The notes under the pieces were generated by a model. That model had not been told where the DNA came from. It was given only the letters and a program-made list of their open reading frames with translations, and made no database searches. From Clostridia bacterium (GTDB lineage: Bacteria; Bacillota; Clostridia; UMGS1883), in NCBI GenBank assembly GCA_017411435.1, contig JAFQQD010000014.1:32789-96788 (forward strand): a stretch of 64,000 bases of DNA, written 5' to 3'. The position numbers were made by a program, and so were the translations under genes. Below, one piece after another: positions 29,553 through 46,581 of this stretch. Numbering within the stretch: position 1 is the first letter of the stretch; each line of letters starts with the position of its first letter.

Positions 29553-29969
29553 AAAATGACGAGGAGTTAGAGGCGTGCTCTAAAGTAATGTCGGTAAGCG
29601 TCAAGCGGTGTAACTACTGAAGTTGCACCGCTTGACCTTATGAAAGGAAAGAAACTTGTTTGAAAGCAGTATGCCGCTATGGTAAACAGAAAAGAATTTG
29701 CAAGAAATGACACGATGAAAGATATTTATACTAAGCGTTGTGTTTGCAGCCGCGCCGAAGATTCAAGAAGATTTGCTGTGAAACAGAATAAGCCCGAACA
29801 TACAAGCGAAAATCAGCTTGCATATTCGGGCTTAATTTGTATCTTAAAATCCGCACATTTGTCAAAAAGAAATTATTGGAATATACTATGTGAAGCAAAT
29901 CTTTGACAGCTTCACGGATATACTTTATGAAAATGGTAGAATATATACAGAAGAAAGGAAGTTGTTAAA
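29553..29969. other. Gene-free stretch with two hairpins before the recombinase
   Basis: No convincing gene in this 417-base gap. It holds a 15-bp stem with one T/C difference (29600-29614 with 29622-29636, arms GTCAAGCGGTG...), perhaps ending rarA transcription although no T-run follows. A second inverted repeat (29789-29807 with 29816-29834, 17 of 19 paired) could be another terminator. The recombinase promoter is at its right end. Confidence 0.5.
29903..29931 (+). promoter_or_regulatory. Promoter for the tyrosine recombinase
   Basis: TTGACA (29903-29908), 17-bp spacer, TATGAA (29926-29931), then GAAAGGAAG before ATG 29970. Confidence 0.6.
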
Positions 29970-30821
29970 ATGAAATTATTAACCAAGGAACTAATTCAGA
30001 AATTCAAAATTTATTTAATCAATGAAGAAAAAGCGGAAGCGACCATTGAGAAATATATGCGAGATATATGCGCATTTATGGAGTGGATTTGCGAGAAGGA
30101 AGTGTGCAAGGAGTATGTTTTGCATTACAAAAAAGAACTTATAGAAAAATATGCTCCAGCAAGTGTAAATTCGATGCTTTCGTCACTCAATGCATTTTTT
30201 GCTTACAATGAATGGTATGAACTCAGAGTAAAATCCATTAAAATTCAAAAGCAAATATTTAGTGCTAAAGAGAAGGAACTTACAAAAGCGGAATATGAAA
30301 GGCTTATCAATGCCGCAAAGAGTAAAAACAACAAAAGATTATATTATCTAATGCAGACTATTTGTTCCTGTGGCCTGAGAGTATCGGAATTGAAATTCAT
30401 TACAACAGATGCCGTAAGGCGTGGACAAGCAACAATTAACTGCAAGGGAAAGATGAGAATTGTTATTTTGCCAAAACAGCTTTGCAAAATGCTCGCAGTT
30501 TATATGAAAGAAAACAATGTAAAAAGCGGCTCCGTGTTTGTAAGCAAAAACGGAAGACCGCTTAACAGGTCAAATATATGGTCTGATATGAAAAAACTCT
30601 GTGAATCTGCCGGAGTTTCCAAAGATAAGGTATTCCCTCATAATCTCAGACATCTTTTTGCAAGAACATATTACTCTCTTCAAAAAGATATAGTAAGACT
30701 AGCTGACATCTTGGGTCATTCAAGCGTAAATACTACGAGAATATATACTATGGAAAGTGGAGATGTTCACAGAAAGCAAATTCAAAAACTAGGGTTACTC
30801 CTGTGTAATAATACATTATAA
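29970..30821 (+). CDS. Tyrosine recombinase (XerD/phage integrase type)
   Basis: The 283-residue protein has an N-terminal SAM-like core-binding domain (about 5-90) and a complete catalytic domain: Arg137 in CGLRVSEL, Lys161, His224-x-x-Arg227 in HNLRHLFA, His250 in LGHSS and the nucleophile Tyr259 in TRIYT. All catalytic residues are present. It is a small single-gene recombinase with no phage or conjugation genes beside it. Its stop codon lies inside a 28-bp dyad that matches the expected shape of a recombination site. A matching inverted site lies 223 bases further on. Its likely job is inversion of that segment rather than integration; that is inference from context. Confidence 0.92.
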   Translation: MKLLTKELIQKFKIYLINEEKAEATIEKYMRDICAFMEWICEKEVCKEYVLHYKKELIEKYAPASVNSMLSSLNAFFAYNEWYELRVKSIKIQKQIFSAKEKELTKAEYERLINAAKSKNNKRLYYLMQTICSCGLRVSELKFITTDAVRRGQATINCKGKMRIVILPKQLCKMLAVYMKENNVKSGSVFVSKNGRPLNRSNIWSDMKKLCESAGVSKDKVFPHNLRHLFARTYYSLQKDIVRLADILGHSSVNTTRIYTMESGDVHRKQIQKLGLLLCNNTL

Positions 30822-30843
30822 CATAATTTGTATTATGTTATAA
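30816..30843 (+). repeat. Putative recombination site, left (inverted repeat L)
   Basis: A perfect dyad: 11-bp arms TTATAACATAA and TTATGTTATAA around the 6-bp centre TTTGTA. The 11-6-11 layout is that of Xer-type sites. It overlaps the recombinase stop codon. The inner 18 bp (ACATAATTTGTATTATGT) recur in opposite orientation in the right site. Confidence 0.7.
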
Positions 30844-30876
30844 CATCACAGACACTAAACCTAATTATACAGTATT

Positions 30877-30905
30877 ATTATAGCATGCAAAGGTAGAAAA
30901 GTCAA
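30877..30905 (-). promoter_or_regulatory. Strong promoter inside the invertible segment, pointing left
   Basis: On the minus strand TTGACT (30900-30905), exactly 17-bp spacer, TATAAT (30877-30882). It is the best promoter match in the segment and in this orientation would produce RNA antisense to the recombinase gene. Confidence 0.75.
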
Positions 30906-30975
30906 TGATTTGCAATTAATTTACATAATTTTATATTTCTTTCGGATATTTGAACAAAAATAGACAACGAAAAAT

Positions 30976-31015
30976 AGGCCAATGTAATAATTTCTGACAA
31001 CATTGGTCTTTTTTT
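30976..31015. terminator. Bidirectional terminator in the centre of the invertible segment
   Basis: Stem AGGCCAATG / CATTGGTCT (one G-U pair), 16-base loop, seven T's on the plus strand and TATTTTT on the minus strand. It separates the two outward promoters and would block read-through from the recombinase gene in either orientation. Confidence 0.75.
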
Positions 31016-31025
31016 CGTGTGCAAA

Positions 31026-31054
31026 TTGACACATATGCCCTATACAAGGAAAAT
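31026..31054 (+). promoter_or_regulatory. Possible weaker promoter pointing to the surface genes
   Basis: A perfect -35 TTGACA (31026-31031), but at 17 bp the -10 is GAAAAT (31049-31054), so strength is doubtful. It may give a basal or alternative expression state in the orientation shown. Confidence 0.4.
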
Positions 31055-31066
31055 ATATCAATAACT

Positions 31067-31094
31067 ACACTACATAATACAAATTATGTAGTAA
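31067..31094 (-). repeat. Putative recombination site, right (inverted repeat R)
   Basis: Arms ACACTACATAA and TTATGTAGTAA (9 of 11 paired) around TACAAA, which is the reverse complement of the left site's TTTGTA. Because the centres are inverted relative to each other, recombination between the two sites would invert the DNA between them. Confidence 0.7.
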
Positions 31095-31228
31095 CTGTCA
31101 GTGGATAAAACTATGTATATAAAATTAAAAAAGCAAAGGGGGTTAAACCATGGAAAGGCTTGATAGTAGCTAGTTATTCTTATCATGGAAACTCAACAAG
31201 TAAGACATTTAGAAAGGAACATGCAAAC

Positions 31229-34200
31229 ATGAAATCTAAAAAAATTATAGCTTGGATATTGTTTATGGCAATGCTTGTTACAATGATACCAAGCTCACTT
31301 GTCTTTGCGGCAACAGATGGTGCCGCTGTACTGTCAACTGCTTCGATGACTAGAGATGCTATTGAGGCAGTTACAGGAAAAGGTTTCAAAGTAGAAAATG
31401 GTACAGATTTTCCGCTTTTGAACAACAAAAATGCTGGAATGTTTGATTCTTCGGTTACAGATATTACATATTTTAGAAGAACACAGGACATTATTATCAA
31501 AGCTGAGTCTGCAGATGGACAATTTTACGATGCAGATGGTAATGTACCTGAAGGTACTTTAAAAATTGCCTACAAAGATGTTTCAGGAAATTTACTTAAA
31601 TTGGACGAAACTAACGGATTTGAATTAAGAGAATTAAAAGCAGGTGAAGATGCTTGGATAGAAATTCATCCAAATCCTTCAATTTGTGATGCCCAAGTTA
31701 CAATTTATAATCTTGGTAAATTTTGGACAGAGGCAGAGCCAGAAGATAAATTCAAATTGACAGCATCTGAAATTGCTACAGCTGATCATATTATTACAGC
31801 ACATTTATTTAATGCGATTGGTGATCAGTTCGCAGGTTACATTTCGATTAAAGCGGTAGATAGCAACGGGAAAGTACACGAAACAGATTATCCGGTTGTT
31901 GCTGATGGTCAGTATCCTTCTTCAAATATTTCTACTGTTACGACAAGACATAATTACGGCGAATACAATGTTGGAACTTTACCTACAGTGGAAGACACTT
32001 TTATTGCAAGTACCGATTTTGAAGAAGCGTTTGATTACGAAAAGTATTCCGATGATGCAGGTAATACTATGCATCCTTATGTAAGCTTAAGACATCCGGA
32101 AGTTAATAAAGCTGATTTAAAAAAAGCTTTGCAACATGCAGACGAAACTGTATGGACGATGAATGACGTTACAATCGAATCTATTACAGTTTTAGATGAA
32201 GAAGTTACTTCTGGAATTGCCGACGTTAAATACTATATTGATAATATTCAGGATGTAGATAAGATTGATGTTGAAGTGGCTCACACAAGTACATCGGTAA
32301 ATATTACTGATGATTTGGCATATGATGCAAGTTTAAAACAGTGGAATTATACTACACCTATCACAATTTCTGATGAAGGCATGACAATCTTAACACTTGT
32401 GATTGAAGACAACGCAGGGCTTGTTAAGACAAACAGATATTATTTCTTTATTGACAAGGAAGCTCCCGTAGCAAAGTTTAATCTTGTTGAATTAAATAAG
32501 AATGTTAAGAGCGATGTTTCGTTATTTACTGTTGCTGATGTAGTAACAAACAGACAACAGGCAATAAATATGGAAGCTAGCACTGATAATAAAGTTGCAG
32601 GTGTTACTTTTGTTTCTGAATTACGCGCAAAAGATGATGCAGGTGATAAGGTTATCATAACAAACGATAAAAAGTATCAGTACCGCTTACTTGCAACTAA
32701 AGTTGGCGAGGTTGCAAAAGATACAGATGGTGACGGTGACAACGATGTTCCGGCAGATTATACCGACGTTGTTGTTGACAAAAAAGGAAATGATTTAAGC
32801 GGTTGGAAAGTTTGGACCGGCGAAACAGAAACCCCTGTTATAGATAAAGAATTTGATGGTATTGTTCAGGTGCGTGTTCAGGATAGAGCAGGTAACTGGT
32901 CTTCTATCGTTTCAACAACAAGCGATGGAAAAGAAACAATAATTACAGATAACACTAACCCTGTAATTGATGTTAAAGAGTATGCTCTTAACTCAAATGC
33001 TGATACAAGCGGCAATACCGCAGATGAAATTATTAATGGTACTGCTACAGATATCTTGGTACACAGTGGCGAAACTGAAGAAACCAAGGGTGAAATTGAA
33101 AACGAAGTTATTCATACAACCACAGGCGATGAAGCTCCTTGGATTAATGATTCTGCAGTATTAGAAGTAAAGATTACTGATGAGGATCTTGTTAACGCAA
33201 TCCGTTCATCCGGTCTTAACAAAGGTCAGATTAATGTAAAAGCAGAATTCAACGCCGAAAATGAGAACAAAAAGATTAAAATCTGGAACAAAAATGGTGT
33301 TGATAAGAAGAATATTGATGATTCTTTCAACCTTACAGAAGATTATATTTTCGGAACAGAGACTGATAAAGATTTAACATTCTATGTTGAATACGAAGGA
33401 ACTGGTGTTGTTGATATCACTGTTTCTGTTAAAGACCAGGCTGATGTAAATGATGCTGATGTTTTCTCATCAATTTATAAGACTCAGCTTCGAGTTGATA
33501 AAATTAATCCTTACATTATATATAAGGGATACGATATCACAGATGATGCCGAGAAAGATTTATTGAAAGCAAACAACGAAAAAGTTGATTACGAAGTTCG
33601 TAATATGCCCTGGGGACCAAACAGTCAGGTTCTTGAAGTTGTTGTGAAAGATGATGATATCACTCCGGTACAGTCAAAAACTAAAAATATAAAATTCAAC
33701 GCTGACAAAGCATTAGATTTGTATAAGTTTAACGGTGATAAATTTACAAAAGTTAAAACTTGTGGCGCAGGCAGTAATAACATCGTATTACTTGGTAATT
33801 GCGAAGAGCTTCCTAATGAAAAGTATGAAGCTAATGTTGGTTATAAGTTCTATCTCGTATATGAAGGTACAGGTGTTGCAAAGGTTGAATTCTTTGCAGA
33901 TGATTCAGCTAAAGAGCCTAATGTAAGGGATTATCCTTCTATCGCAACAGCTGCCGATGCAGAACCCGTATTGTACGATGCAATGCTTCGCGTTGATAAA
34001 ATCAACCCTGAAATTAAAAATGTTACTCTTGTTCAAACATCTGATGATGTAAATGACAGTATTTCTTTATTTACAATTAATAAGACAGATGATGTTGAAG
34101 TTAACACAAGAAAGAAAATGAAGGTAATATTTGAAATTGTTGATAACAATTCTGCAAATGATGTTCTGGATGGAGCGAATAGTGAACAGTCTGGCGTTAA

Positions 34201-37200
34201 CATTCAGGACGAATATCTTGATACAGATTTAATCGATGTTTGCGGTAAATATGTTGTTAATGATAAGGAACATCTATATGAAAATGTGGATGATCCCACA
34301 TATGTAACAAATGGTGCAAATGATATAGCGGCAGATCCTCATATTGATTTCATTCTTATCCCTGCCGAAATAGGTGTTGTTGACAGTAAGGTTGGTGGCA
34401 AGTTCTTAGTTGAACTTCCAGTAAAGACAGATAATGACAGTATAAAAAAATGGGTCGATGACAGTATTGCTAAATGGGAAGAAGAAAAAATTTCTGTTAC
34501 ATGGCAGAATGCATCATGGGAAGATGGTGGAATTGTTATTCCCAATGAATTTCAGGGTGCAATCGTTCTTAGAACAATTGACCGTGTAGGTAATATAGAT
34601 TATTCAAAACCTATCACATTTGTTGCAGAATCAAGAGAAGCTATAATTGAATTCAATCCACAGGCAGGCTTTATCTATTCACAGAACAACTACGGTTGGT
34701 CAAAACGTAACAATGATTATGTTGAAATTCGTGTGAAAGATAATAATGAAACAGCAGTTGCTGATGCATGGATTGAAAACGTATTCATCAAAGTTACTGA
34801 CTTTGAAGGTAATGAAATGGATGCAGAATTTGCATACACTTTAGATGGCACAACCGCTGTAAATGTTTCAAAATATAATTATAAAGCATTAGCAGATAGC
34901 GGGAAATACCATGTTGATTATGGATATGATGTTATCGATGGTAAAGGACTGGTCGAAACAACAATTCGTGATGAAGAAGGTTATATTCATCTCGGTTATG
35001 TAAAAGTATCTGAAAGTGCAAAGATTGAGGTTACTATCTTTGATAAAGCAAAAGCAAACGATGTCGAATACACAGGCAATAAAACGACTGCCACATGGAT
35101 CACACGATTTGATCGCACCGCTCCAATAATTGGTGAATTTAGCTTGGAAAAATTAGATTCAGATGGTTATTCATTAGTATTGCAGGCGGACGATGCTGAA
35201 TCAGGTATGGCTCCTGCTATTACAGATAGCGAATACAACAATTATAAAGCAGAAAATATTCCAAATAATATTTTTGGCACAGAAACATCATATTTATATA
35301 ATGTAAAAAATGACGTTGATGAAGAAGTTGTAAGATTTAATAGCGGAGTATTTAACCAAGGACAGTATGAACTTCCCGGTTTGCAGTATGCTCTTCTTGA
35401 AGAAGGAGATACACTTGAAGATATTGAACCTTGGGAATTTGAAAAAGATCCCAACGGACAGATTGATAAAGTTGACGCATTTGATGATAATGGTTACCAC
35501 AGAGGAAAATTTGGCAAAACGCTTGTATGGCATAACTATAAGGATGCTATGACAAAAGTTGTTGATGGAGATTTTAATGGCTACATCGTTGTTAGAGCAA
35601 TTGACAGAGCAGGTAACATAACAGTAATGGGTTATGCTCCAACACTTGACGTTACAGCAGATGATGCTTGGAAAAATGAAACACAATATATTAATGTTAA
35701 AGCACTTGATATCAGTGGGGATACTGTTAACAAAGTAGAATATTATGGTAACAATGGATTGCTGTATCCTGAAGGAGCGAAAAGAGATATAACAACAGAA
35801 GCTCTCAGCGGTGAAGGTGCATTTGTTGAAGTGGTTGAGGAAGGTATAACAAAGGTTATCGTAAGAGCCTCTAAATCATATGCTGATGAAAAAGCAATTA
35901 CTCTTGGTGAAAGCGGATTGAGAAATGATATCTGGGAAGGCAATCTTATTCTTGGCAATCCTACAGCTACAGGATATGAAGATTGGAAATATCAGATTAC
36001 TGATGTTAAGATTGATAAAACTGCTCCTACATTTAACTTTGAACTTAAAGGTGATACAGCAACCGAGAAAGATAAAAAGTTAACAGAGACAGATGTAGCA
36101 GTTGGTCCAATCACAATTAACATAGTAGATGCAAATGATCCTACTCCCAACAAAGATGATGACACAATGTCTCATATTGCATCAGGAATTAAAACTGTCG
36201 ATGGAATGGAAATTATTGAATGGTGTGCGATTCCTGAAGGTTCTGAGGAGGAAATTTGGAAGAACTATAACGAGGATGGCGGCGAAGTTGATTTTGCAAA
36301 CTTTACAGGAACAATAAAGATTCGTGTGACTGATAATGCCGGCAACGTAACGGAAAAATCACAAAGAATTAAAATTGACAGTGCATTGCCGATTATCAGT
36401 ATTTTAAAATCTCATAATGAAAAGTGTAGTCATGAACCTGTAGATGTGTTTGTAACAGTATCTGAAAGTGTTGAGTTTTCTGATGTGAAAAAGGTTGAAT
36501 ATACAATTACACATCCAGTTTGCGTTAAGGAAGAGTGCACCACAGAAGATTGTCCTTTGGAAGATCATCGCAAGGAAACAGGTAGTCTTCCGTTGACAGG
36601 TGGTACAATTTCTGTTGACAGAGAAGGTATAACAACAATTAAAGTAACTGCTTATAATAAAGCAAATGTTCCTTCAGAACCAGCAGAAACAAATGTAATT
36701 ATTCATTATGAAGATTTAGCTGTTCCAAGCCTTACAACAGTAGAGGATAAAACAATTAAATCAGGCGACTGGATATTTGATAATACAACAACCGCAATTA
36801 CTGGTGTAGTGAATGTTAAATATCCGATAAGTGATACACTTAGTGATGTTGATAATAGTCGCATGGTTTACTATTCATTAAATGGTAGCACTTGGGAGAA
36901 AGTTGTAGATAATAGAATTACAGGCTTAACCGCTGGTGCAAATACTATTAGACTTCAGGCACGTTGTGAAAATTGCATTTGCGAAAGTGATGTAGTTACA
37001 TACGTTGTTAATTATCACAATCCAGAAGAGATGCCCAACATTTCCGTAACTTATGATGATAACGAATCTTCAAATTGGCAGAAAGAAGCAGCTGTTGTCT
37101 CAATTGCTGCAAACCGCGGCGAATCTCCTGCAGAAATTCAGTCAATTTCTTATGAGCTTGGTTCTGGTTCTGCCACACTTCCTAAGTATTATTTAGGAAA

Positions 37201-38791
37201 AGACGGTGGTAATATAGTAATCCAGGAAGAAGGAATATGGAATATTAAGAAAATTATCATCACCATGGAATCTGGCGTTGAGTATATTGTTGTTGACGAG
37301 GCACCTGATTTCTATAACAAACTTGAAGTTTATGTGGATCAGGAACCTTCTGGTACTACAATTGCTAAAATAGATAGAACTGCGCCAAAGGTTGAACCCG
37401 GTGCATTCAAACTGGTAGATACTGAAGAGAAAGCATTAACCCTGTTCGGCATGGAAGATGTTAAGAGCGATAAACAGCTTAAACTAGAAATTGACAAAAA
37501 CAAAATCTCAGACAATTGCACAACAGAAAAAAGTTCTCTTGGATATTACTATGCAGTTGTTCCGAATGGAGCTGCAGGATATAACTGGAAGTCTGCTGAA
37601 AATGGCGATGTTATTATAACAGAAGCATTTGAAGGAACAGTTCTTTTCAAGGTTGTTGACTTAGCAAATAATGAGACCATTGTTTCTCAGACAGTAATTA
37701 CAGAAGGAAACAAACCTGAAGTTTCATTAACATATTCCATGGGATGGTCAACAGAAGCCGTAGCTATTACAGTAGATGTTTTTGACAGCGGTGTAACTTC
37801 TGGAATCAGCGACATCCATTATGTATTAAAGGACAAAAACGGAAATATACTTCCCGGTTATGATGGATATGTTATTGCAAGTGAGGGCGTCAATAATTGG
37901 GCAAAACTCAATACAAGAGGCGGACAGATACTTATTAATGAAGAGGGTGAATACCAGTTAGAGGTAACAGCTATAGATAATCTTGGTAATGAAAGCACCA
38001 TGCAGACAGTAGATATCAAAATAGACAAAACCGCTCCTTCATACTCAGGTTCTGTCACACTCAGCTTGTTCAACATCCACACAATCAATAACTGGGACGA
38101 TATTCATGACGGTTGGACATACAACCATCCTGTAAGCATTTCGGGTATTAATGACAGTATTTCCGGAATTAAGGATATCAAAATCAAGGTAACAACTGAA
38201 AGCGGTGTTACTAACGAAACAACACTTAATGCAAGTCAGACCGGCACATCATTCTCTACAGACGGTAAGTATGATTTGACAATTACTGATAACGCAGGAA
38301 ATGTAAGAAATATCAGTTTTGTAATCGACAAAGATTTAGAAAATGTAATCAATGTTGTAGGTGTAGATGAATTTGGTAAGGTAAATGTTGCTGTAACAGA
38401 CGGTGATGATATGCTTACATTCTACAGCATGGAAGATGAAAGCGATGCAGTAGAAACTAAGATGCATAAAACCGGTGTTACAGATCAGCTTTGGGATGGC
38501 AGAACCGGTGTTAGATACATCTACGGTAGGGATGATGCAGGCAAGACAACTAATAAATTGCATGTGATTGTTGCACCAAGTAACAACTATGAAATCACAC
38601 TTTCAAGCTTGATGGAAACAGAGAGCGCTGCGACACCTAACAGATACTTAAACATTGATGCTGACGGTGAAAGTGTAACAATAAAGAAGACCGCAGAACT
38701 TTTCAATACTAATATCAATAAAAATATTTTTGCCGGATCAATCGTTGAAATCAACGAAGATGGCGTATACTCAATTACAACCAACGACTAA
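31229..38791 (+). CDS. Giant secreted Ig-like repeat surface protein
   Basis: A 2520-residue protein with a signal peptide (about 1-28) and many beta-sandwich, bacterial Ig-like repeats. Recurrent motifs are IDRAGN or TDNAGN near strand ends, IDKTAP at domain boundaries, and a duplicated unit of about 180 residues ending YEGTGV...RVDKINP. It is rich in Asp, Glu and Asn; DTDGDGDND near residue 497 resembles a calcium-binding loop. Cysteines are clustered in a few pairs (for example around ECTTEDC). It has no LPXTG, SLH or transmembrane anchor, so it may be released or held by neighbours. AAAGG precedes ATG 31229; a TTG further upstream would place junk before the signal peptide. It is the first gene downstream of the invertible segment. 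Confidence 0.85.
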   Translation: MKSKKIIAWILFMAMLVTMIPSSLVFAATDGAAVLSTASMTRDAIEAVTGKGFKVENGTDFPLLNNKNAGMFDSSVTDITYFRRTQDIIIKAESADGQFYDADGNVPEGTLKIAYKDVSGNLLKLDETNGFELRELKAGEDAWIEIHPNPSICDAQVTIYNLGKFWTEAEPEDKFKLTASEIATADHIITAHLFNAIGDQFAGYISIKAVDSNGKVHETDYPVVADGQYPSSNISTVTTRHNYGEYNVGTLPTVEDTFIASTDFEEAFDYEKYSDDAGNTMHPYVSLRHPEVNKADLKKALQHADETVWTMNDVTIESITVLDEEVTSGIADVKYYIDNIQDVDKIDVEVAHTSTSVNITDDLAYDASLKQWNYTTPITISDEGMTILTLVIEDNAGLVKTNRYYFFIDKEAPVAKFNLVELNKNVKSDVSLFTVADVVTNRQQAINMEASTDNKVAGVTFVSELRAKDDAGDKVIITNDKKYQYRLLATKVGEVAKDTDGDGDNDVPADYTDVVVDKKGNDLSGWKVWTGETETPVIDKEFDGIVQVRVQDRAGNWSSIVSTTSDGKETIITDNTNPVIDVKEYALNSNADTSGNTADEIINGTATDILVHSGETEETKGEIENEVIHTTTGDEAPWINDSAVLEVKITDEDLVNAIRSSGLNKGQINVKAEFNAENENKKIKIWNKNGVDKKNIDDSFNLTEDYIFGTETDKDLTFYVEYEGTGVVDITVSVKDQADVNDADVFSSIYKTQLRVDKINPYIIYKGYDITDDAEKDLLKANNEKVDYEVRNMPWGPNSQVLEVVVKDDDITPVQSKTKNIKFNADKALDLYKFNGDKFTKVKTCGAGSNNIVLLGNCEELPNEKYEANVGYKFYLVYEGTGVAKVEFFADDSAKEPNVRDYPSIATAADAEPVLYDAMLRVDKINPEIKNVTLVQTSDDVNDSISLFTINKTDDVEVNTRKKMKVIFEIVDNNSANDVLDGANSEQSGVNIQDEYLDTDLIDVCGKYVVNDKEHLYENVDDPTYVTNGANDIAADPHIDFILIPAEIGVVDSKVGGKFLVELPVKTDNDSIKKWVDDSIAKWEEEKISVTWQNASWEDGGIVIPNEFQGAIVLRTIDRVGNIDYSKPITFVAESREAIIEFNPQAGFIYSQNNYGWSKRNNDYVEIRVKDNNETAVADAWIENVFIKVTDFEGNEMDAEFAYTLDGTTAVNVSKYNYKALADSGKYHVDYGYDVIDGKGLVETTIRDEEGYIHLGYVKVSESAKIEVTIFDKAKANDVEYTGNKTTATWITRFDRTAPIIGEFSLEKLDSDGYSLVLQADDAESGMAPAITDSEYNNYKAENIPNNIFGTETSYLYNVKNDVDEEVVRFNSGVFNQGQYELPGLQYALLEEGDTLEDIEPWEFEKDPNGQIDKVDAFDDNGYHRGKFGKTLVWHNYKDAMTKVVDGDFNGYIVVRAIDRAGNITVMGYAPTLDVTADDAWKNETQYINVKALDISGDTVNKVEYYGNNGLLYPEGAKRDITTEALSGEGAFVEVVEEGITKVIVRASKSYADEKAITLGESGLRNDIWEGNLILGNPTATGYEDWKYQITDVKIDKTAPTFNFELKGDTATEKDKKLTETDVAVGPITINIVDANDPTPNKDDDTMSHIASGIKTVDGMEIIEWCAIPEGSEEEIWKNYNEDGGEVDFANFTGTIKIRVTDNAGNVTEKSQRIKIDSALPIISILKSHNEKCSHEPVDVFVTVSESVEFSDVKKVEYTITHPVCVKEECTTEDCPLEDHRKETGSLPLTGGTISVDREGITTIKVTAYNKANVPSEPAETNVIIHYEDLAVPSLTTVEDKTIKSGDWIFDNTTTAITGVVNVKYPISDTLSDVDNSRMVYYSLNGSTWEKVVDNRITGLTAGANTIRLQARCENCICESDVVTYVVNYHNPEEMPNISVTYDDNESSNWQKEAAVVSIAANRGESPAEIQSISYELGSGSATLPKYYLGKDGGNIVIQEEGIWNIKKIIITMESGVEYIVVDEAPDFYNKLEVYVDQEPSGTTIAKIDRTAPKVEPGAFKLVDTEEKALTLFGMEDVKSDKQLKLEIDKNKISDNCTTEKSSLGYYYAVVPNGAAGYNWKSAENGDVIITEAFEGTVLFKVVDLANNETIVSQTVITEGNKPEVSLTYSMGWSTEAVAITVDVFDSGVTSGISDIHYVLKDKNGNILPGYDGYVIASEGVNNWAKLNTRGGQILINEEGEYQLEVTAIDNLGNESTMQTVDIKIDKTAPSYSGSVTLSLFNIHTINNWDDIHDGWTYNHPVSISGINDSISGIKDIKIKVTTESGVTNETTLNASQTGTSFSTDGKYDLTITDNAGNVRNISFVIDKDLENVINVVGVDEFGKVNVAVTDGDDMLTFYSMEDESDAVETKMHKTGVTDQLWDGRTGVRYIYGRDDAGKTTNKLHVIVAPSNNYEITLSSLMETESAATPNRYLNIDADGESVTIKKTAELFNTNINKNIFAGSIVEINEDGVYSITTND

Positions 38792-38860: not shown

Positions 38861-40273
38861 ATGAAAAAAATTATTTCCTGCATTCTTGCAGTTACAATGC
38901 TATGTTGCAGTGCTGTCGCTTTTGCTGACGAAAAAGAGGTTGTAATTGATACTGAAGTACCTGTATTTGATGACCTTTCAGATAATACAAGTTATAAAAA
39001 CAGCAAAGATGTATATATCGCTGATTTGAGCCCAGTTCACTATATTGTGTTAAGAAAAGACAACAGTAAAAGTACGACATTTCAATTTACCAATTCACAA
39101 GACGAGCTAATAACAAAAACCTTTAATGGGTATAGCGAAATTGGTAAAGACCACAATATTTCTTGTGCAGATGAGTTTATAAAGATCTATTCAGCCACAA
39201 GTGCTGGTTCGTATATGGTCTATGCAACTGATATATACGGGCATGACATTGCTGTCAGATTCACTATCAAATCCAGTTCTGATGGAGATTCTGGCGGCGG
39301 CGGAGGCAGCGGAGGTGGAGACAACACTCCCATTAAAATCAGACAGCCGTACGCCAACGGAGAACCTGAGAATACAAGAGGAAATCTTATAGCAGGTGAA
39401 AAAATAAAATTAAGCTCCGATACGGGAAATGTTAAAATATATTACACAACCGATGGAACGACACCAACAAGTAAAAGCAACCTTTATAATAGTGAAAAAG
39501 GAATTATCCTGACAGAAGGCCAAATATTAAAAGCAATTGCTATCAAAAAAGAAATGTCAAGCGATATTTCCGAATGGAAATGTATTGTTGCTCCAACAGA
39601 AAAACCGCAGATAGGTGATTCTGTTGTTAAAGGTGCATTGGAAACAGAAGACCATATTGTGTATATGACCGGTTATCCGGATGAAACATTTGGTCCAAAT
39701 AAAAATATGACTCGTGCAGAAGTAGCAACAATGTTTGCGCGGCTTATGAAAGAAAAAATGGATGCCGATGCCGTATATGAATCTTCATTTGCGGATGTTA
39801 CTCCTGATGCATGGTATTATAACTATGTTGGTTATATGGAAAAATTCGGAATTATTACCGGTTATGAAGATGGAACATTCCGACCTCAAAACACTATAAC
39901 AAGAGCTGAATTTGTAACAATGGCAAGTCGTTTTGCAACTATAAGCCAAGAATATGAGTGCGACTTTACAGATGTTACAACCAAGCACTGGGCATATGAA
40001 TATATTGCATTTGCTGCAGAAAATGGATGGGTTGGAGGCTACGAAGACAATACTTTCAGAGCTGATAATACTATCACAAGAGCAGAAGTTGTAACAATTG
40101 TAAATAATATGCTTGTCAGAAGTGCTGACGAATCTTATGTAAACCCAAACAAAGCATCACTTACATTGTTTGCTGATGTAGACGCGACACATTGGGCTTA
40201 TTATGACATCATTGAGGCAACAAACGAGCATACTTATTCTGTAAGTGGTAACAAAGAAAAATGGAATGAGTAA
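38861..40273 (+). CDS. SLH protein with chitobiase-C-like domain
   Basis: The 470-residue protein has a signal peptide (about 1-22), an unrecognised N-terminal domain (to about 140), a Gly-rich linker and a chitobiase/FN3-like C-terminal domain (about 175-245, IYYTTDGTTPTSKSN). Three SLH repeats follow (about 265-455), with GYPDETFGPNKNMTRAE, GYEDGTFRPQNTITRAE and GYEDNTFRADNTITRAE. The SLH end should bind the cell wall, leaving the N-terminal part exposed. It could anchor the giant protein encoded upstream, which has no anchor of its own; that is inference. Confidence 0.88.
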   Translation: MKKIISCILAVTMLCCSAVAFADEKEVVIDTEVPVFDDLSDNTSYKNSKDVYIADLSPVHYIVLRKDNSKSTTFQFTNSQDELITKTFNGYSEIGKDHNISCADEFIKIYSATSAGSYMVYATDIYGHDIAVRFTIKSSSDGDSGGGGGSGGGDNTPIKIRQPYANGEPENTRGNLIAGEKIKLSSDTGNVKIYYTTDGTTPTSKSNLYNSEKGIILTEGQILKAIAIKKEMSSDISEWKCIVAPTEKPQIGDSVVKGALETEDHIVYMTGYPDETFGPNKNMTRAEVATMFARLMKEKMDADAVYESSFADVTPDAWYYNYVGYMEKFGIITGYEDGTFRPQNTITRAEFVTMASRFATISQEYECDFTDVTTKHWAYEYIAFAAENGWVGGYEDNTFRADNTITRAEVVTIVNNMLVRSADESYVNPNKASLTLFADVDATHWAYYDIIEATNEHTYSVSGNKEKWNE

Positions 40274-40285
40274 GGTGATTTTTGT

Positions 40286-40930
40286 TTGAAAAAAAGTTAT
40301 TTTAAGTTAATAACTGTCTTGATATGCTTGTTAGTTGTGACAAACGGCACTCTAACAAAGGCGAAAGGATGGCCTTTGTACACAGATGTTGATGGGGATT
40401 TCTGGGCGTATGACGCAATTAAATACTCTACTGACAGACAATGGTTTAGTGGGTATTCCGACGGAAATTTTTTGCCAGACAAACTTATTACACGCGCAGA
40501 AGCGGCGAAAGTTTTAGCTGTGTATGAATATAGAAATCGTGAGTATCCGTCTATAAGCAGTTTTACAGATGTTAGTATAGATATGTGGTATGCACCATAT
40601 ATCGAGGCTACAGATGATTTGTTTCCAAATGTGTCTCCCGGCTGCGCATTTAGGCCGAATGATTTCATGACAAGAGAGGATACGGTATATGCCATTGTAA
40701 ATGCAGCCAGACTTAACAATAAGGTTAAGTATGTTGATGTTTCCGTGGTAGATAGTTTTTGCGATAGTAGTACGGTAGAGCAGTTGTTGAAACCTTATAT
40801 TGCTATAGGTATACAGACATCTTTAATATCAGGATACAGTGATGGGACATTTTGCCCCAAAAAACCTCTTACGCGTGCTGAATTTGCAACTCTTTTGTAT
40901 AGAGCTGCGAATATCAGCAAGCTAGACTAA
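40286..40930 (+). CDS. Small SLH-only protein
   Basis: A 214-residue exported protein: signal peptide (about 1-26) then three SLH repeats (GYSDGNFLPDKLITRAE, a diverged middle repeat with FRPNDFMTRED, and GYSDGTFCPKKPLTRAE) with no other domain. The start is TTG 40286, supported by AAGGTGAT (40272-40279) and by the signal peptide beginning exactly there. It is 12 bases from the previous stop, so probably coupled. It may be a minimal wall-coating or spacer protein. Confidence 0.82.
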   Translation: MKKSYFKLITVLICLLVVTNGTLTKAKGWPLYTDVDGDFWAYDAIKYSTDRQWFSGYSDGNFLPDKLITRAEAAKVLAVYEYRNREYPSISSFTDVSIDMWYAPYIEATDDLFPNVSPGCAFRPNDFMTREDTVYAIVNAARLNNKVKYVDVSVVDSFCDSSTVEQLLKPYIAIGIQTSLISGYSDGTFCPKKPLTRAEFATLLYRAANISKLD

Positions 40931-40972
40931 GATTGTGACCATGTATGAATTAATTAGGAAAGGAAGATTTAC

Positions 40973-42922
40973 ATGAAAAAGTTATTTTGCTTAATTACTG
41001 CAGTAATATTGGCAGTTTCTATGTCAGTAACATCACTTGCAGCACCGACTTATGGTTCTGAATGGGATGGCTACTATCAAGTTGCTCCAACAAGATTTTC
41101 AGATGTACCTTCGACACATTGGGCGTACAACGCCATTATGCAGGTATATCAGAAGAACTGGTTTAGCGGATATCCTGACGGTTCCTTCAGACCTAATGCT
41201 TCTATCACAAGAGCAGAAGCACTTAAAGTTTTCGTTGTATTTTTAGGCCTCGATTATCAGAGTGTTGATTTATCAAATCTTTCATATTCTGATATATCTG
41301 CCAGCGACTGGTATGCAGCATATGTTGAAGCAGGAAAGGATCTTTTCCCTGTGCATACAACAATTCAGGGAAAAACACCCTTCAATCCCAATATGCCTGT
41401 AACAAGAGAAGATACAATCTACGCACTTGTAAAGGCTCTTGGTTGCGATGTTGATGTGAAATATCCTGACCAGTCTGTGCTTAATATGTTTAGCGACAAA
41501 TCAAGTATTTCCGGTTCAATTAAAGACGAATTTGCAATTGCTCTTACCGAAGGCTTGGTATCAGGTTTCCCGGATGGAACAATCCGCGCACAGGCAGCTC
41601 TTACAAGAGCGGAATTTGCAACACTTCTTCTTCGTGGTACAGAACACGGATTCCATGATAGATATCAGGCTAAAATTTCTACTGTAACCGTTACACCTGC
41701 AAACAACACTGAAATGACAGTAGGTGAAACAATTACATTATCAGCAAGAGCAACATATACTGACGGAACAAATCAACCATATACTTCCTTGTCACCATAT
41801 GATGCTAGCGGAAATGGCGTTGTATCTGTAAATGGAACAAAAATTACAGCCCTCAAAGAAGGTAAAGCTGAAATTAAGTATAATGATTCTTACCTCAAGA
41901 ACGAAACTTTGACAATTATCGTTAAGAATCCTACAGACGCTCCTGTAGTTAAGGTTACAGGCTATGATGAAATCACAGAAGAAGAAAGCATGACTGTTAG
42001 CGGAACTGTTACAGATAAGAACGGCAGCGTTGATTTAACATGTAACGGTAAGGATGTTTCTGTGAATTCTGATGGCAGCTTCAAAACAACAGTTGCACTT
42101 AAGGTTGGCAGAAATGAAATCAAGTTTGTTGCTACAAACATTTACGGACTTGAGACAGAAAAGACTATTGTTATAGAAAGAGAAAAAGCCGAAGAAGAAA
42201 AGCCTGTTGTTCCCACTGATGATGGGAAGAAGGAAGAAGACGATAAAAAAACTCCCTCATCTTCCACAACTGTAAGTGGTGAAGACGGAACTCCTTATTT
42301 AACATTTGATAAGGAAACAGGAACAATTACAAAATGTGGAACAAGTGCTGCTGATATCGAAATCCCTGAAAAAATCGAAGGTGTAAATGTATATAACATC
42401 GGTGAAGGAGCTTTTGCAGATTGCACATATCTTGAGAGCATTGAATTCCCTTCAACCTTAAAAAGCATAAAAGCAGATGCATTTAGTGGTTGTATCCGTC
42501 TTGTTGAAGTTGAAATCCCCGAAGGTGTTACATCAATTGGTGCAGGCGCATTTTACGGTTGTGTATCTTTAACAGATGTAATCATTCCCGAAGGCGTTAA
42601 GAAAATTGCTGATGAAACATTTTTTGGTTGCAAGAGACTGGTAAATATTTCACTTCCCGAAGGACTTAGAACAATCAGCGCAAGCGCATTTGATGGTTGC
42701 AAGAGCTTAACAGAAATCGAACTTCCCGAATCCACAACTAAAATTGAAAATGGAGCATTTACTGATTGTGGTAGTCTTAAAAAGATTGTAATTCCTGACA
42801 GTGTAACATCAATTGCTGATGATGCATTTAATGGTTGTAATGCAATTACAATATATGCTTCTGTCAATTCATATGCAATAGAATATGCAAAAGAAAAAGG
42901 TATCGCTTGGGAAATCATCTAA
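40973..42922 (+). CDS. SLH protein with Big2-like, glucodextranase-like and BspA leucine-rich repeats
   Basis: The 649-residue protein has a signal peptide, three SLH repeats (about 38-215), a Big2-like domain (about 225-320), a second beta domain (about 325-395) and a charged linker (about 398-435). The C terminus has about six BspA-type leucine-rich repeats (about 455-635; motif IPEGVTSIGAGAFYGC and variants). Such repeats often bind host or matrix proteins. Its SLH and Big2 parts are nearly the same as those of the next gene, at DNA level too. AGGAAAGGAAG precedes ATG 40973. Confidence 0.9.
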   Translation: MKKLFCLITAVILAVSMSVTSLAAPTYGSEWDGYYQVAPTRFSDVPSTHWAYNAIMQVYQKNWFSGYPDGSFRPNASITRAEALKVFVVFLGLDYQSVDLSNLSYSDISASDWYAAYVEAGKDLFPVHTTIQGKTPFNPNMPVTREDTIYALVKALGCDVDVKYPDQSVLNMFSDKSSISGSIKDEFAIALTEGLVSGFPDGTIRAQAALTRAEFATLLLRGTEHGFHDRYQAKISTVTVTPANNTEMTVGETITLSARATYTDGTNQPYTSLSPYDASGNGVVSVNGTKITALKEGKAEIKYNDSYLKNETLTIIVKNPTDAPVVKVTGYDEITEEESMTVSGTVTDKNGSVDLTCNGKDVSVNSDGSFKTTVALKVGRNEIKFVATNIYGLETEKTIVIEREKAEEEKPVVPTDDGKKEEDDKKTPSSSTTVSGEDGTPYLTFDKETGTITKCGTSAADIEIPEKIEGVNVYNIGEGAFADCTYLESIEFPSTLKSIKADAFSGCIRLVEVEIPEGVTSIGAGAFYGCVSLTDVIIPEGVKKIADETFFGCKRLVNISLPEGLRTISASAFDGCKSLTEIELPESTTKIENGAFTDCGSLKKIVIPDSVTSIADDAFNGCNAITIYASVNSYAIEYAKEKGIAWEII

Positions 42923-42937
42923 AATATATAAATGATA

Positions 42938-42968
42938 TGAAAAGGCGGCATACTCTGCCGCCTTTTCA
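42938..42968 (+). terminator. Hairpin after the leucine-rich repeat SLH gene
   Basis: A 13-bp perfect stem TGAAAAGGCGGCA / TGCCGCCTTTTCA with loop TACTC, eight bases before the next gene's ribosome-binding site. The T-rich 3' arm suggests at least partial termination. Confidence 0.65.
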
Positions 42969-42990
42969 AAAGTAGAAAGGAGTGCTGAAT

Positions 42991-45108
42991 ATGAAATGTA
43001 AAGCAAAGAAAATTATAACCCTATTGCTTACTGTAACAATGCTTTTATCAACAGTAAATGTATTTGCATTGGAATATGGTGCAGAATGGGGCGGGTATGT
43101 TGATGTAGACACACAAAAGTATTCAGATGTACCGCGTTCCCATTGGGCGCATGATGCTATTGTAAGAGCAAGTGAAAAGAACTGGTTTAGCGGATATCCT
43201 GACGGTTCCTTCAGACCTAATGCCTCTATCACAAGGGCTGAAGCACTTAAAGTTTTCGTTGTATTCTTAGGCCTCGATTATCAGAGTGTTGACCTGTCAG
43301 ATCTTTCATACAGTGATATATCTACCAGTGACTGGTACGCACCCTATGTTGAAGCAGGAAAGGACCTTTTCCCTTCACATACAACAATCCAGGGCAAAAC
43401 CCCCTTCAATCCTAATATGCCTGTGACAAGAGAAGATACAATCTACGCGCTTGTAAAGGCTCTTGGTTGCGATGTTGATGTAAAATATACTGACCAGTCT
43501 GTACTTAATATGTTCAGTGATGCCAACAGTATTTCAGGCAACATTAAATCAATATTCTCAATTGCATTGATGCATGAACTTGTATCCGGTTTCCCGGATG
43601 GAACAATCCGTGCACAGGCGGCTCTTACAAGAGCGGAATTTGCAACACTTCTTCTTCGTGGTACAGAACATGGATTCCACGACAAATATGAAGCTAAAAT
43701 ATCAAAAGTAACTGTTTTTCCCGCATCACCGGTAGAAATTGAAATTGGTGAAAGTGTTACACTCTCGGCAAATGCAACATATACGGATGGAACAGTTAAA
43801 CCATATACAAGTCTTCAGCCTTATGATGCTGAAAACAACAGTGTTATATCTTTAGAAGGAACAACAATCACTGGACTTAAAGAAGGAACAACAACAATTA
43901 AGTACAATGATTCATACCTTAAAAAAGACAGTTTGACAGTCATCGTTAAGAAACCTACAGATGCTCCTAAAATAAAGGTTACAGATTATCCCGACACAAC
44001 TGATGAAAGCAGAGTAACAATTTCCGGTGCTGTTATAGATAAAAATGTTGCAACTGTTGACTTTACATGCAATAGTAAAGATATTTTGTTAAATGCTGAC
44101 GGAAGCTTTAGCACAATCGTATCACTGAAGCCAGGTGTAAACACTATTAAATTTACAGCAGTCAATGAATATAATATGTCTGCTGAAAAAACAATAGAAA
44201 TTACAAGAACAAGTGCACCGAGTATTTTCATCACAAAATACAAAGAACGCACTACTGCTTCAAAAACAACTGTTGAAGGTATAATTACAGACGGTGATCT
44301 TTCTACAGTAAAACTTTCATGCAACGGTGCAGATATAAGTATGAATGCAGATGGTAGCTTTGCTACAGAAGTTAACCTGAAAATGGGCAAAAATCCTTTT
44401 ACATTTGCTGCAACAAATCAATATGGAAAAACAGCACAGCAGGCGATAGAAATTACACGATATGAAATTGAAGATTCAGGGAAAATTGAGGATAAACCTG
44501 ATGTAGAAAAAACTGAAGGTAAGGTTGAACTTGTTTTTGTAATTGATGCAACAGGTTCTATGTGGGATGAAATCGGAAATGTTAAAACAAATATCAGCGA
44601 ATTTGCAAAATATTTGGAAGAAGAAGGCGTAGACCTCAAAATGAGCGTAGTTGAATACAGGGATATTACCTGTGGTGAGCCAACTAAAGTTCATAAATAC
44701 TCCGGTAGTACATGGCACACAGATTCAGAAAGCTTGATATCCACATTAGCGTCTATTGGTGCTTCAGGCGGTGGAGATAATCCCGAAAGCGTTCTTGATG
44801 GATTTGGTCATGTTTTAGATAACAGACATATGGATTGGTCAGATGATGCATTTAAGTTTGCTGTTCTTCTTACAGATGCAGACTATAAGACAGAAAATAC
44901 ATACAGCTATAGCAGCTTAGAAGAAATTGCAAATGAACTTGCAGCGGTAAGAATGACTACTTCTGTAATCACATCAACATCCCTTTTTGACACCTACAAT
45001 GTTTTGAATAGTAAAACAGGTGGTTTGCAAATTGATATAACATCAGACTTTGATAAGGCTTTATCAGACTTGGCTGATAAAATTACTGGTAGATCTTTGA
45101 GAGACTAA
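42991..45108 (+). CDS. SLH protein with von Willebrand factor A domain
   Basis: The 705-residue protein has a signal peptide, three SLH repeats (about 35-215), a Big2-like domain, two related beta domains (about 325-400 and 405-490), and a C-terminal vWA domain (about 510-700). The metal-ion-dependent adhesion site is recognisable: DATGSM (family D-x-S/T-x-S), GGGDNPES and LTDADY. Such domains mediate metal-dependent protein binding. ATG 42991 has AAAGGAG eight bases upstream. The first ~330 residues closely repeat the previous protein, while the C terminus differs completely. Confidence 0.9.
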   Translation: MKCKAKKIITLLLTVTMLLSTVNVFALEYGAEWGGYVDVDTQKYSDVPRSHWAHDAIVRASEKNWFSGYPDGSFRPNASITRAEALKVFVVFLGLDYQSVDLSDLSYSDISTSDWYAPYVEAGKDLFPSHTTIQGKTPFNPNMPVTREDTIYALVKALGCDVDVKYTDQSVLNMFSDANSISGNIKSIFSIALMHELVSGFPDGTIRAQAALTRAEFATLLLRGTEHGFHDKYEAKISKVTVFPASPVEIEIGESVTLSANATYTDGTVKPYTSLQPYDAENNSVISLEGTTITGLKEGTTTIKYNDSYLKKDSLTVIVKKPTDAPKIKVTDYPDTTDESRVTISGAVIDKNVATVDFTCNSKDILLNADGSFSTIVSLKPGVNTIKFTAVNEYNMSAEKTIEITRTSAPSIFITKYKERTTASKTTVEGIITDGDLSTVKLSCNGADISMNADGSFATEVNLKMGKNPFTFAATNQYGKTAQQAIEITRYEIEDSGKIEDKPDVEKTEGKVELVFVIDATGSMWDEIGNVKTNISEFAKYLEEEGVDLKMSVVEYRDITCGEPTKVHKYSGSTWHTDSESLISTLASIGASGGGDNPESVLDGFGHVLDNRHMDWSDDAFKFAVLLTDADYKTENTYSYSSLEEIANELAAVRMTTSVITSTSLFDTYNVLNSKTGGLQIDITSDFDKALSDLADKITGRSLRD

Positions 45109-45114
45109 AATCAC

Positions 45115-45146
45115 TGTGGTTGCTTCATTCATTTGGAGCAACCACA
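45115..45146 (+). terminator. Hairpin after the vWA SLH gene
   Basis: A 10-bp perfect stem TGTGGTTGCT / AGCAACCACA with a 12-base loop and a short CTTTAT tail, just ahead of the protease ribosome-binding site. Confidence 0.55.
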
Positions 45147-45165
45147 CTTTATCATGAGGTACATA

Positions 45166-46581
45166 ATGAAAAAAATTTTTGTAACCCTTATATTTTTTAT
45201 TTGCACTATTATTTGCATTAGCGTTAATGCAGAAAATGAAAGCAATGGTTATATTGTAAAAGTGAAAGAAGATTCGATTTCATTAATGTGCGTTACTGAT
45301 GAAATCACACATATAAGCGATAATCTATACCGTGCAGATAATCTAAATGACTTATATAGCGTTATACCTGCAGATTATATTGAAACTATTTTCCCTGATT
45401 ACAAATTTGAATTATTTGACTTAGATTATCCGGATATAACCAGCGATATAGAATTTGATTCTCAATGGTATCTAGATAAAATTAATGCTGATTCTATCAG
45501 AAAAAAGGGCCTGTCAGGGGAAGGCGTGAAAATTGCTGTAATTGATAGCGGAATAAATTTTTCACACCCCGATTTTAATCAATCAAATATTTTACAAGGA
45601 TATAACTGCACTTTTGGCGCAGAAGATATAAACGATTATAACGACAATGTGGGGCACGGAACGATGGTTGCAGGCATCATTGCAGCCCAAACAGACAATG
45701 AACTTGATATTGCAGGGATAGCAAGCAATACTCAAATTATTCCTATAAAAATAACAGACACAAATTCTCTAAATATTTCGAGTATATTTTTGGGATTGGA
45801 AAAAGCATTAGAAACAGATTGCGATATAATTAATATGAGTTTTGGAGGGGCAATAACCGATGAAGAAGCTCTATCTGTTTTGAAAAGTTATATAGATAAA
45901 GCAGAAGAAAAAGGCATTATTGTTGTTGCTGCGGTTGGAAACAGTGGTCATACTGATAATGTTATGAATTATCCTGCCGGTTTTGACAATGTTATTGGTG
46001 TTGGTTCTGTAGATGAGGATTTAACATCATCGTATTTTTCTCAAAAAAATGAAAGCGTGTTCATATCTGCTCCGGGTAATAATATTGTATCACTGTTCAA
46101 GAATAATTCTACAACAACAGGATTGGGAACATCGTTATCTGCACCTATTGTTACTGCGGTTATATCGATTATAAAAGAGGTTCGCCCGGAGTGTACATTG
46201 CAGGAAATAAAAGAATTACTAAAAAATACTTCTTTGGATTGTGGAGCTAAAGGTTACGACACAAGCTATGGATATGGCGTATTAAACTTAGAGGGAATTG
46301 TTGAAGAAATAAGTGGTGATATACCGGAATTTATTGTTTCACAGGGTATTATAAATGCTAAAAAAAGAGTACATATACATAACAATTCTTCAAAAAACAT
46401 ATTAGCAAATGCCTTTTTTGCTTCATACGGAGACAATAATTGCTTGGAAAATATGGAGATCATTGAAAATATCAATCTAATTGATGGCGTAACTAATATT
46501 ATTAACGAAAAAACTTATGGAAGCTTTTTCGTGTGGGACAAAAACCTCCGACCATATACAAAGAAGTATTCAATAAAATAA
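45166..46581 (+). CDS. Secreted subtilisin-family (S8) serine protease
   Basis: The 471-residue protein has a signal peptide (about 1-22), a short propeptide region and a subtilisin domain (about 115-385). The catalytic triad is complete: Asp127 in VIDSG, His164 in GHGTMVAG and Ser323 in GTSLSAP; the oxyanion Asn is in VAAVGNSG. The last ~85 residues form an unrecognised tail. ATG 45166 is chosen because the signal peptide starts there and GAGGT lies upstream. As the last gene of the surface cluster it may process or shed the neighbouring proteins; that is inference. Confidence 0.92.
   Translation: MKKIFVTLIFFICTIICISVNAENESNGYIVKVKEDSISLMCVTDEITHISDNLYRADNLNDLYSVIPADYIETIFPDYKFELFDLDYPDITSDIEFDSQWYLDKINADSIRKKGLSGEGVKIAVIDSGINFSHPDFNQSNILQGYNCTFGAEDINDYNDNVGHGTMVAGIIAAQTDNELDIAGIASNTQIIPIKITDTNSLNISSIFLGLEKALETDCDIINMSFGGAITDEEALSVLKSYIDKAEEKGIIVVAAVGNSGHTDNVMNYPAGFDNVIGVGSVDEDLTSSYFSQKNESVFISAPGNNIVSLFKNNSTTTGLGTSLSAPIVTAVISIIKEVRPECTLQEIKELLKNTSLDCGAKGYDTSYGYGVLNLEGIVEEISGDIPEFIVSQGIINAKKRVHIHNNSSKNILANAFFASYGDNNCLENMEIIENINLIDGVTNIINEKTYGSFFVWDKNLRPYTKKYSIK

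What the first reader, a model, noticed from the sequence alone, without database searches (positions are those of the whole stretch)
29970..31228. Probable phase-variable promoter switch driven by an adjacent tyrosine recombinase
Two Xer-like sites (30816-30843 and 31067-31094) have 11-bp arms and identical 6-bp centres in inverted orientation (TTTGTA and TACAAA). The inner 18 bp match perfectly as an inverted repeat. A complete tyrosine recombinase gene ends inside the left site. The 223 bp between the sites hold a TTGACT-N17-TATAAT promoter on the minus strand, a bidirectional terminator in the centre and a weaker plus-strand promoter. Downstream begins a ~15-kb same-strand surface-protein cluster. 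Inversion would place the strong promoter facing the cluster. The logic matches known invertible promoters such as that of cwpV with RecV in Clostridioides difficile, but the sites look Xer-like and unrelated to those.
Basis: partly seen in the sequence, partly recalled or inferred. Interest (0 to 1): 0.92.

Follow-up and report, generated by a model that had tools for sequence, protein, structure and literature searches.

The report
Self-bent, helix-phased flipping promoter switch
A gut bacterium carries a promoter between two mirror-image sites beside a recombinase gene that is predicted to flip it and so would switch a surface-protein cluster on and off; the DNA between the sites carries phased A/T runs that predict a built-in bend, and across related switches the sites tend to lie a whole number of helix turns apart, which likely helps the two sites meet.

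Summary
In the whole genome the exact core ACATAA-N6-TTATGT occurs at four places: this pair and a second pair beside the only close paralogue. Of 183 loci holding a homologue (duplicates included), 151 have paired sites just after the gene. In the first set all 86 pairs found have centres identical in inverted orientation, with 48 different centres. In 133 non-redundant loci the promoter faces the recombinase in 90, the downstream gene in 26, unclear in 17. Orientation is scattered over the recombinase tree much as if shuffled, and related loci have the segment reversed between colinear flanks. So this is almost surely an invertible promoter; no same-strain flip was seen. The cwpV analogy is wrong in one point: cwpV's promoter lies outside its inverting segment.

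The parts
29970..30821 (+). Tyrosine recombinase gene (283 aa), presumed invertase of the adjacent sites
   Evidence: PF00589 E=1.7e-30; R137, K161, H224, R227, H250, Y259 (catalytic roles recalled) invariant apart from gaps in 133 aligned homologues, the window's included
30816..30843 (+). Left recombination site: 11-bp arms around TTTGTA; overlaps the recombinase stop codon
   Evidence: left site starts a median of 7 bp after the stop in 133 loci
31067..31094 (-). Right recombination site, inverted copy; centre-to-centre 251 bp = 23.9 turns of 10.5 bp
30844..31066 (.). Presumed invertible segment, 223 bp, AA/TT phased at 10.5 bp, predicted bend about 148 degrees
   Evidence: AA/TT power 6.60, P=0.002 against 1000 shuffles; wedge model with recalled parameters: end-to-end/contour 0.485 versus 0.879 shuffled, P=0.003 of 300 shuffles
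30877..30905 (-). Extended sigma-A-type promoter TTGACT-N17-TATAAT, at present facing the recombinase; -10 end 47 bp from the left site centre
30962..31022 (.). Bidirectional intrinsic-terminator-like hairpin in the middle of the segment
   Evidence: terminator-like hairpins forward/reverse/both in 29/23/18% of 133 segments versus 0/0.8/0.3% of letter shuffles
31229..38791 (+). First target gene: 2520-aa protein, likely secreted, with Ig-like domains
   Evidence: Big_3_2 E=5.1e-6; signal-peptide-like start read by eye
38861..46581 (+). Rest of the same-strand cluster: three S-layer-homology proteins with added domains, one short SLH protein and a subtilase
   Evidence: plus-strand terminator-like hairpins at 40113-40131 (inside the first of these genes) and 45115-45146 (at the start of the subtilase gene), in a scan that found 10 on both strands against 7.9 in shuffles

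Best explanation
The 251-bp unit at 30816-31094 is most likely an invertible promoter that the adjacent tyrosine recombinase (29970-30821) is predicted to flip, which would switch the surface-protein cluster at 31229-46581 on and off. Shown by sequence: the paired sites, one clear promoter between them, its two orientations among relatives, site-to-site distances clustered at whole helical turns, and, in the segments as a group, AA/TT steps phased at 10.5 bp at a fixed angle to the site centres. Inferred: the recombinase binds both sites; because 250 bp of straight DNA resists looping, the phased bend brings the sites together on the same face, doing part of the job that bending proteins such as IHF do at fimS (recalled); strand exchange at the shared 6-bp centre inverts the segment. 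In the arrangement assembled here the promoter points away from the cluster (OFF) into the 3' end of the recombinase gene. Inversion would put its -10 at about 31028-31033, about 47 bp before the right site centre, with a leader of roughly 190 nt to the first target gene. In OFF the antisense transcript might damp the recombinase and hold OFF, which would fit the 90:26 bias.
For: Genome-wide specificity. Paired sites in 86 of 102 loci of the first set, centre identical and inverted in 86 of 86, 48 centres (the test allowed direct pairs and some centre mismatches). Both orientations, 26 versus 90 of 133 with 17 unclear; at least 22 orientation changes on the tree of 116 clear cases, shuffled mean 23.7, 92 of 500 shuffles as low. 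Reversed segments between colinear flanks, e.g. L114/L117 80% and L058/L073 83% identical when one is reversed. Contigs that stop at a site: L074, L131, L025, L143 (left) and L101 (right), 9-16 bp past the centre. Length phasing: R=0.63 at 10.5 bp in 79 loci, R=0.40 (z 8.6) in 54 further loci, mean phases -0.62 and -0.46 bp. AA/TT power 4.88 versus 1.30 +/- 0.11 shuffled, 1.51 in 463 AT-rich control windows; phase fixed to both sites.
Against: No same-strain or same-species flip was seen; the one pair of distinct strains held, L165 and L194, shows one orientation. Thirteen of 183 homologue loci have 1.5 kb or more of downstream DNA yet gave no pair (three of them, L188, L019, L026, match only part of the gene; L100 did pair). 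The genome's second switch (L002) is in length phase (24.95 turns) but shows no clear AA/TT phasing (P=0.29); 56 of 133 segments do not exceed the 3.9 power level (77 do); four named-record relatives are mixed (26.5, 27.2, 27.0 and 25.0 turns; powers 1.35, 4.96, 0.69, 4.37). Under coarse clustering the length phasing weakens to p about 0.003 (44 clusters) and 0.03 (28 clusters). In 56 of 270 segment pairs the similarity strand and the promoter calls disagree. A minus-strand terminator upstream of the recombinase is no commoner than a plus-strand one (7% versus 12.5% of 128), so the antisense idea has no comparative support.
Confidence: 0.87

Rival explanations
1. The recombinase and sites are a decayed or fixed relic (or a mobile-element attachment arrangement) and the segment no longer inverts; the promoter simply faces the recombinase.
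For: No same-strain flip seen; the 6 relatives in the smallest well-supported set of more than two rows around the window all have the window's orientation.
Against: Site centres stay identical within each pair while differing between loci, 86 of 86, which suggests continuing exchange or selection; orientation shows no clear phylogenetic signal over the family; catalytic residues intact.
Confidence: 0.06
2. Inversion is real but the helical length classes come from mutation (duplication of about one-turn units in a periodic A-tract sequence), not from a looping constraint.
For: The 21-bp difference between L058 and L069 reads, by eye, as a tandem duplication of a unit of about 22 bp (alignment).
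Against: The 10-bp difference between L036 and L040 does not look like a duplicate of its neighbours (by eye); the absolute phase is within about 0.6 bp of whole turns, which drift by any unit need not give; AA/TT phase is fixed to the site centres.
Confidence: 0.2
3. The phased A/T runs serve transcription (UP element or binding of a nucleoid protein) and only incidentally recombination.
For: The signal is strongest in the promoter half (power 3.78 in the 100 bp next to the near site, 2.89 in the rest).
Against: Peaks recur to about 225 bp from the near site, far beyond an UP element (extent recalled); the far part also keeps a fixed phase to the site (R 0.44).
Confidence: 0.25

Closest known systems
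fimS switch of Escherichia coli (FimB/FimE)
   Same: Tyrosine recombinase gene next to a short segment that carries the target's promoter between inverted repeats (described in PMC2784873, passages); centre distance 305 bp = 29.05 turns in K-12
   Different: fimS has 9-bp repeats, no AA/TT phasing at 10.5 bp (power 0.59, P=0.63; maximum over 10.2-10.8 bp 3.67) and uses IHF/Lrp (recalled); the recombinase here is far below the cutoffs of the NCBIfam tyrosine-type invertase models (33 bits, cutoff 221), which I take, from memory, to be the FimB/FimE kind
cwpV and other RecV switches of Clostridioides difficile
   Same: Xer-family tyrosine recombinase flips a roughly 200-bp segment before a cell-wall protein gene (PMC2784873, passages)
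   Different: There the promoter is outside the segment and a terminator is proposed to switch; 21-bp repeats 195 bp apart give 216 bp centre to centre, 20.6 turns, by my arithmetic
Invertible promoters (invertons) of gut bacteria
   Same: Promoter between inverted repeats, often near surface genes (PMC11892184, passages and section 6)
   Different: The earlier published motifs named there are from Bacteroidota and Akkermansia; two Firmicutes_A groups (125, 139) have new motifs in a supplement I could not read, so overlap with this family is not excluded
Helical-phase effects in DNA looping (lac repressor; Hin/Fis)
   Same: Sites brought together by DNA loops; that loop formation depends on helical phase is recalled (PMC1762422 and PMC3798978, listing and start of abstract only)
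   Different: Those are studies of single systems; here a phase preference is read from natural lengths in a family

Membership tests
Tyrosine recombinase superfamily | Catalytic domain with R-K-H-R-H/W-Y | tested here: met
   PF00589 E=1.7e-30; six residues invariant apart from gaps in 133 proteins
XerC/XerD/XerA equivalogs | Score above NCBIfam cutoff | tested here: not met
   XerA 141 of 220, XerD 132 of 330, XerC 116 of 335 bits
FimB/FimE-type DNA invertase | Score above the cutoff of NCBIfam's tyrosine-type DNA invertase models (taken as this type from memory) | tested here: not met
   NF007370 33.4 bits, cutoff 221; NF007371 23.4 bits, cutoff 222
Invertible promoter (inverton) | Inverted site pair with identical centres flanking a promoter | tested here: met
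Invertible promoter (inverton) | Both orientations of one locus in one population | tested here: inconclusive
   Both orientations between related loci; contig ends at sites; the one pair of distinct strains shows one orientation
cwpV/RecV-type switch | Promoter outside the inverting segment, switching by terminator | tested here: not met
   The strong promoter is inside; cwpV facts from PMC2784873
Invertible promoter (inverton) | Change of target expression with orientation | not testable with these tools
   needs RNA data

The most novel reading that the evidence does not exclude
A large, portable family of invertible promoters in Clostridia whose flipping is written into DNA shape: the segment is pre-bent by A/T runs locked in phase with the crossover sites and its length is held to whole helical turns, so that the loop closes with less help from bending proteins; modules with different 6-bp centres work in parallel without cross-talk and drive adhesins, S-layer proteins, TetR regulators and SLOG proteins.
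Probability: 0.55. Interest if true: 0.86.

Novelty: new variant of a known kind. Interest (0 to 1): 0.76.

Why it matters
How short DNA loops form in living cells, and what sets the rate of phase-variable switches, are hard to measure. This family offers more than a hundred natural switches in which length, bend direction, promoter place and site centre can be compared, and a sharp prediction: adding half a turn should slow inversion, adding a whole turn should not. It also points to a widespread phase-variation device in little-studied gut Clostridia, recognisable from sequence alone, with the recombinase, sites, promoter and target side by side.

Tried and rejected
Same-strain evidence: among the loci with paired sites that are near-identical to each other, only L165 and L194 (99% identical) come from distinct strain records, and their segment is in one orientation. 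Phage spread: no relative confirmed in viral contigs; three phage records matched at 33-44%, and the one fetched (L199) has no site pair in the stretch searched. Plasmid relatives (5 records): four show pairs (L194-L197; the arms of L195 differ from the family's), L198 only a chance-like pair. Antisense control of the recombinase: kept only as a speculation. The plus-strand promoter was not kept. Two pairs were dropped before counting: L041 (weak chance pair, 18 of 28 identical) and L119 (runs of N); with them in, the length phasing of the 56 added loci is R=0.38, z=8.0. L100, paired, was missed by the second detector and is not in the 133. In the added loci the detector required at least 11 of 12 central bases identical, so centre identity there is not independent evidence. 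Rfam gave no match at its gathering scores. Literature: searches listed no paper that I recognised, from titles and abstract openings, as describing length phasing or built-in curvature of invertible promoters; some searches listed only part of the papers that held the terms, and most subscription papers are not held, so this is weak evidence of absence.

Full report
What is there. The central hairpin is strong on both strands. The protein is a tyrosine recombinase close to, but below the cutoffs of, XerA, XerD and XerC; the best solved relative by sequence is a XerC-like enzyme, 4a8e (archaeal, recalled). Relatives are very numerous: 7995 of the 8000 candidates that were scored passed E 1e-30.

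Specificity. In the 2.0-Mb genome the exact core ACATAA-N6-TTATGT occurs at four places: this pair and a second pair on another contig beside the only close paralogue, 69% identical. The pattern read backwards gives none. Three further matches to the recombinase in the genome are distant (27-36%) and have no exact core on their contigs.

Relatives. Searches gave 102 loci with a usable homologue (window and duplicates included); 86 have the pair within 600 bp after the gene, in all 86 inverted with identical centres, 48 different centres in all. A wider set of 183 loci (duplicates included) gave 151 pairs, 135 after removal of duplicates and 133 after dropping L041 and L119. Of the 32 without a pair, 19 have under 500 bp of DNA after the gene and 13 have 1.5 kb or more. 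The left site begins a median of 7 bp after the stop codon; 123 of 133 lie within 60 bp.

Promoter and orientation. In 108 of 133 segments the best promoter scores above the 99th percentile of shuffles. It faces the recombinase in 90, the downstream gene in 26 and is unclear in 17. Both directions pass the 95% level in 5 of 133, one in 115, neither in 13. 26 versus 90 differs from equality at p=2e-9, but the loci are related and an assembly shows the commoner form. The tree of the 116 clear cases needs 22 changes of orientation, at least 16 of them forced by well-supported branches, against 23.7 for shuffled labels, with 92 of 500 shuffles as low: orientation carries little if any family signal. 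Of 302 similar segment pairs, 125 match in reverse. Fifteen pairs with opposite promoter calls, drawn from 13 loci and mostly from one clade, have a reversed segment match while gene and downstream flank match on the same strand (a sixteenth listed pair has the same call in both and only a 27-bp match). L058 and L073 come from one MAG and are paralogues (83% identity when one is reversed); L114 and L117 come from different genomes (80%). Similarity strand and promoter call agree in 214 of 270 segment pairs with clear calls; 56 disagree. Of 27 contigs ending within 520 bp after the gene (two duplicate pairs among them), five end 9-16 bp past a site centre (L074, L131, L025, L143, L101), and L181 and L182 end inside what the paralogue L183 shows to be a site; the others end elsewhere. 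This is what an assembly graph would do if both orientations were present, though short repeats shared by paralogues could also break contigs.

Helical phasing of length. Distances between site centres cluster at about 220, 230, 241, 251, 262, 273, 283 and 295 bp, near whole multiples of 10.5. The first 79 loci give R=0.63 with mean phase -0.62 bp; 54 loci added afterwards give R=0.40, phase -0.46 bp, z=8.6; their best period in a free scan is 10.3 bp (56 loci). With one locus per recombinase cluster: 91 clusters at 80% identity, p about 4e-11; 44 clusters at 70%, p about 0.003; 28 clusters at 65%, p about 0.03. Among 109 pairs of recombinases at least 80% identical (not independent of each other), 90 differ in length: by 1-5 bp in 49 (mostly 1 or 2), 9-15 in 29, 19-25 in 6, 31 in 1 and 60 or more in 5, with none at 6-8. 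The window itself is 23.9 turns, the second switch 24.95.

Phased A/T steps. AA/TT power at 10.5 bp averages 4.88 in 133 segments, shuffles 1.30 +/- 0.11 (z 31); at 10 and 11 bp it falls to about 1.6. Upstream DNA gives 1.70 (125 regions; itself z 3.3 over its shuffles), recombinase coding DNA 1.13 (132), AT-rich windows elsewhere in the loci 1.51 (463). 58% of segments but 8% of these windows exceed 3.9. The phase sits about half a turn from the site centre at both ends (R 0.61 and 0.74), with peaks recurring to about 225 bp, blurred around 146-151 bp. A wedge model with recalled parameters makes 110 of 133 segments more compact than shuffles; the window is predicted to bend about 148 degrees. 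The K-12 fimS segment has no such signal (0.59). The promoter is locked in too: of 116 clear promoters, the -10 end lies 25-26 bp from the near site centre in 2, 31-38 in 33, 43-49 in 63 and 54-60 in 15, with 3 farther away and none in the gaps. A hexamer TATGTA occurs in 47 of 113 leaders (shuffles 7.1; reverse TACATA 2), in 31 of the 47 starting 29-35 bp before the near site centre; it resembles a site arm and may be a further recombinase contact, but the window's leader lacks it.

Targets. Among 121 first downstream frames (the window's own and 120 of the 132 relatives), cut at 430 aa, Pfam finds LRR_5 in 11, TetR_N in 11, List-Bact repeats in 8, an SPFH (Band_7_1) domain in 7, SLOG (YpsA) in 6, SLH in 4 and others; 25 of 76 families were shown. 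The window's own first 430 aa match none; its Ig-like match lies near the C-terminus. The module is thus used for surface proteins, regulators and possible defence-type proteins (the last label is my own reading).

Mechanism. Shown: anatomy, both orientations across relatives, phasing. Inferred: binding, looping aided by the bend, exchange at the shared centre, ON and OFF expression. Flipping would put the -10 at about 31028-31033 and give a leader of roughly 190 nt. In OFF the promoter reads antisense into the recombinase; a minus-strand hairpin at 29834-29789 could end that RNA. This could bias the switch to OFF, as termination of fimE mRNA does in fim (described in PMC2784873), but a minus-strand terminator there is not commoner than a plus-strand one in relatives, so it is conjecture.

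Novelty. An adjacent tyrosine recombinase with an invertible promoter is a known kind. The length quantisation and built-in curvature were not found in print in searches (listed titles and abstract openings only), nor in the passages of PMC5903667 and PMC11892184 (its motif supplement was not readable).

Noticed in passing
31150-31173: A short open frame (ATG GAA AGG CTT GAT AGT AGC TAG) with a strong ribosome-binding-site-like AAAGGGGG lies between the right site and the first target gene: possible leader peptide.
   Followed up: no
L002 (G000 contig 20): The genome has a second switch of the same family (sites 262 bp apart, centre TCGAAA) before another gene with a signal-peptide-like start, also in the orientation facing the recombinase.
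   Followed up: partly
for example L007, L012, L016, L046, L061, L066, L077, L114: Eleven first downstream proteins match TetR_N; several switches with the TCGAAA centre sit before TetR-like regulators, so some switches may set a regulator rather than a surface protein. The loci named were picked by eye from protein starts, not from the scan.
   Followed up: no
for example L024, L027, L088, L128, L138 and L042, L075, L125: Some switches sit before SLOG-like, helicase-like or nucleotide-binding-like genes that look like defence functions by their starts (by eye); phase-variable defence would be worth a check.
   Followed up: no
leaders of 47 of 113 segments: Strand-specific TATGTA about three helical turns before the near site centre; possible extra recombinase half-site.
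   Followed up: partly
29780-29843: Large hairpin (28-nt arms, 82% complementary) upstream of the recombinase, terminator-like on the minus strand.
   Followed up: partly
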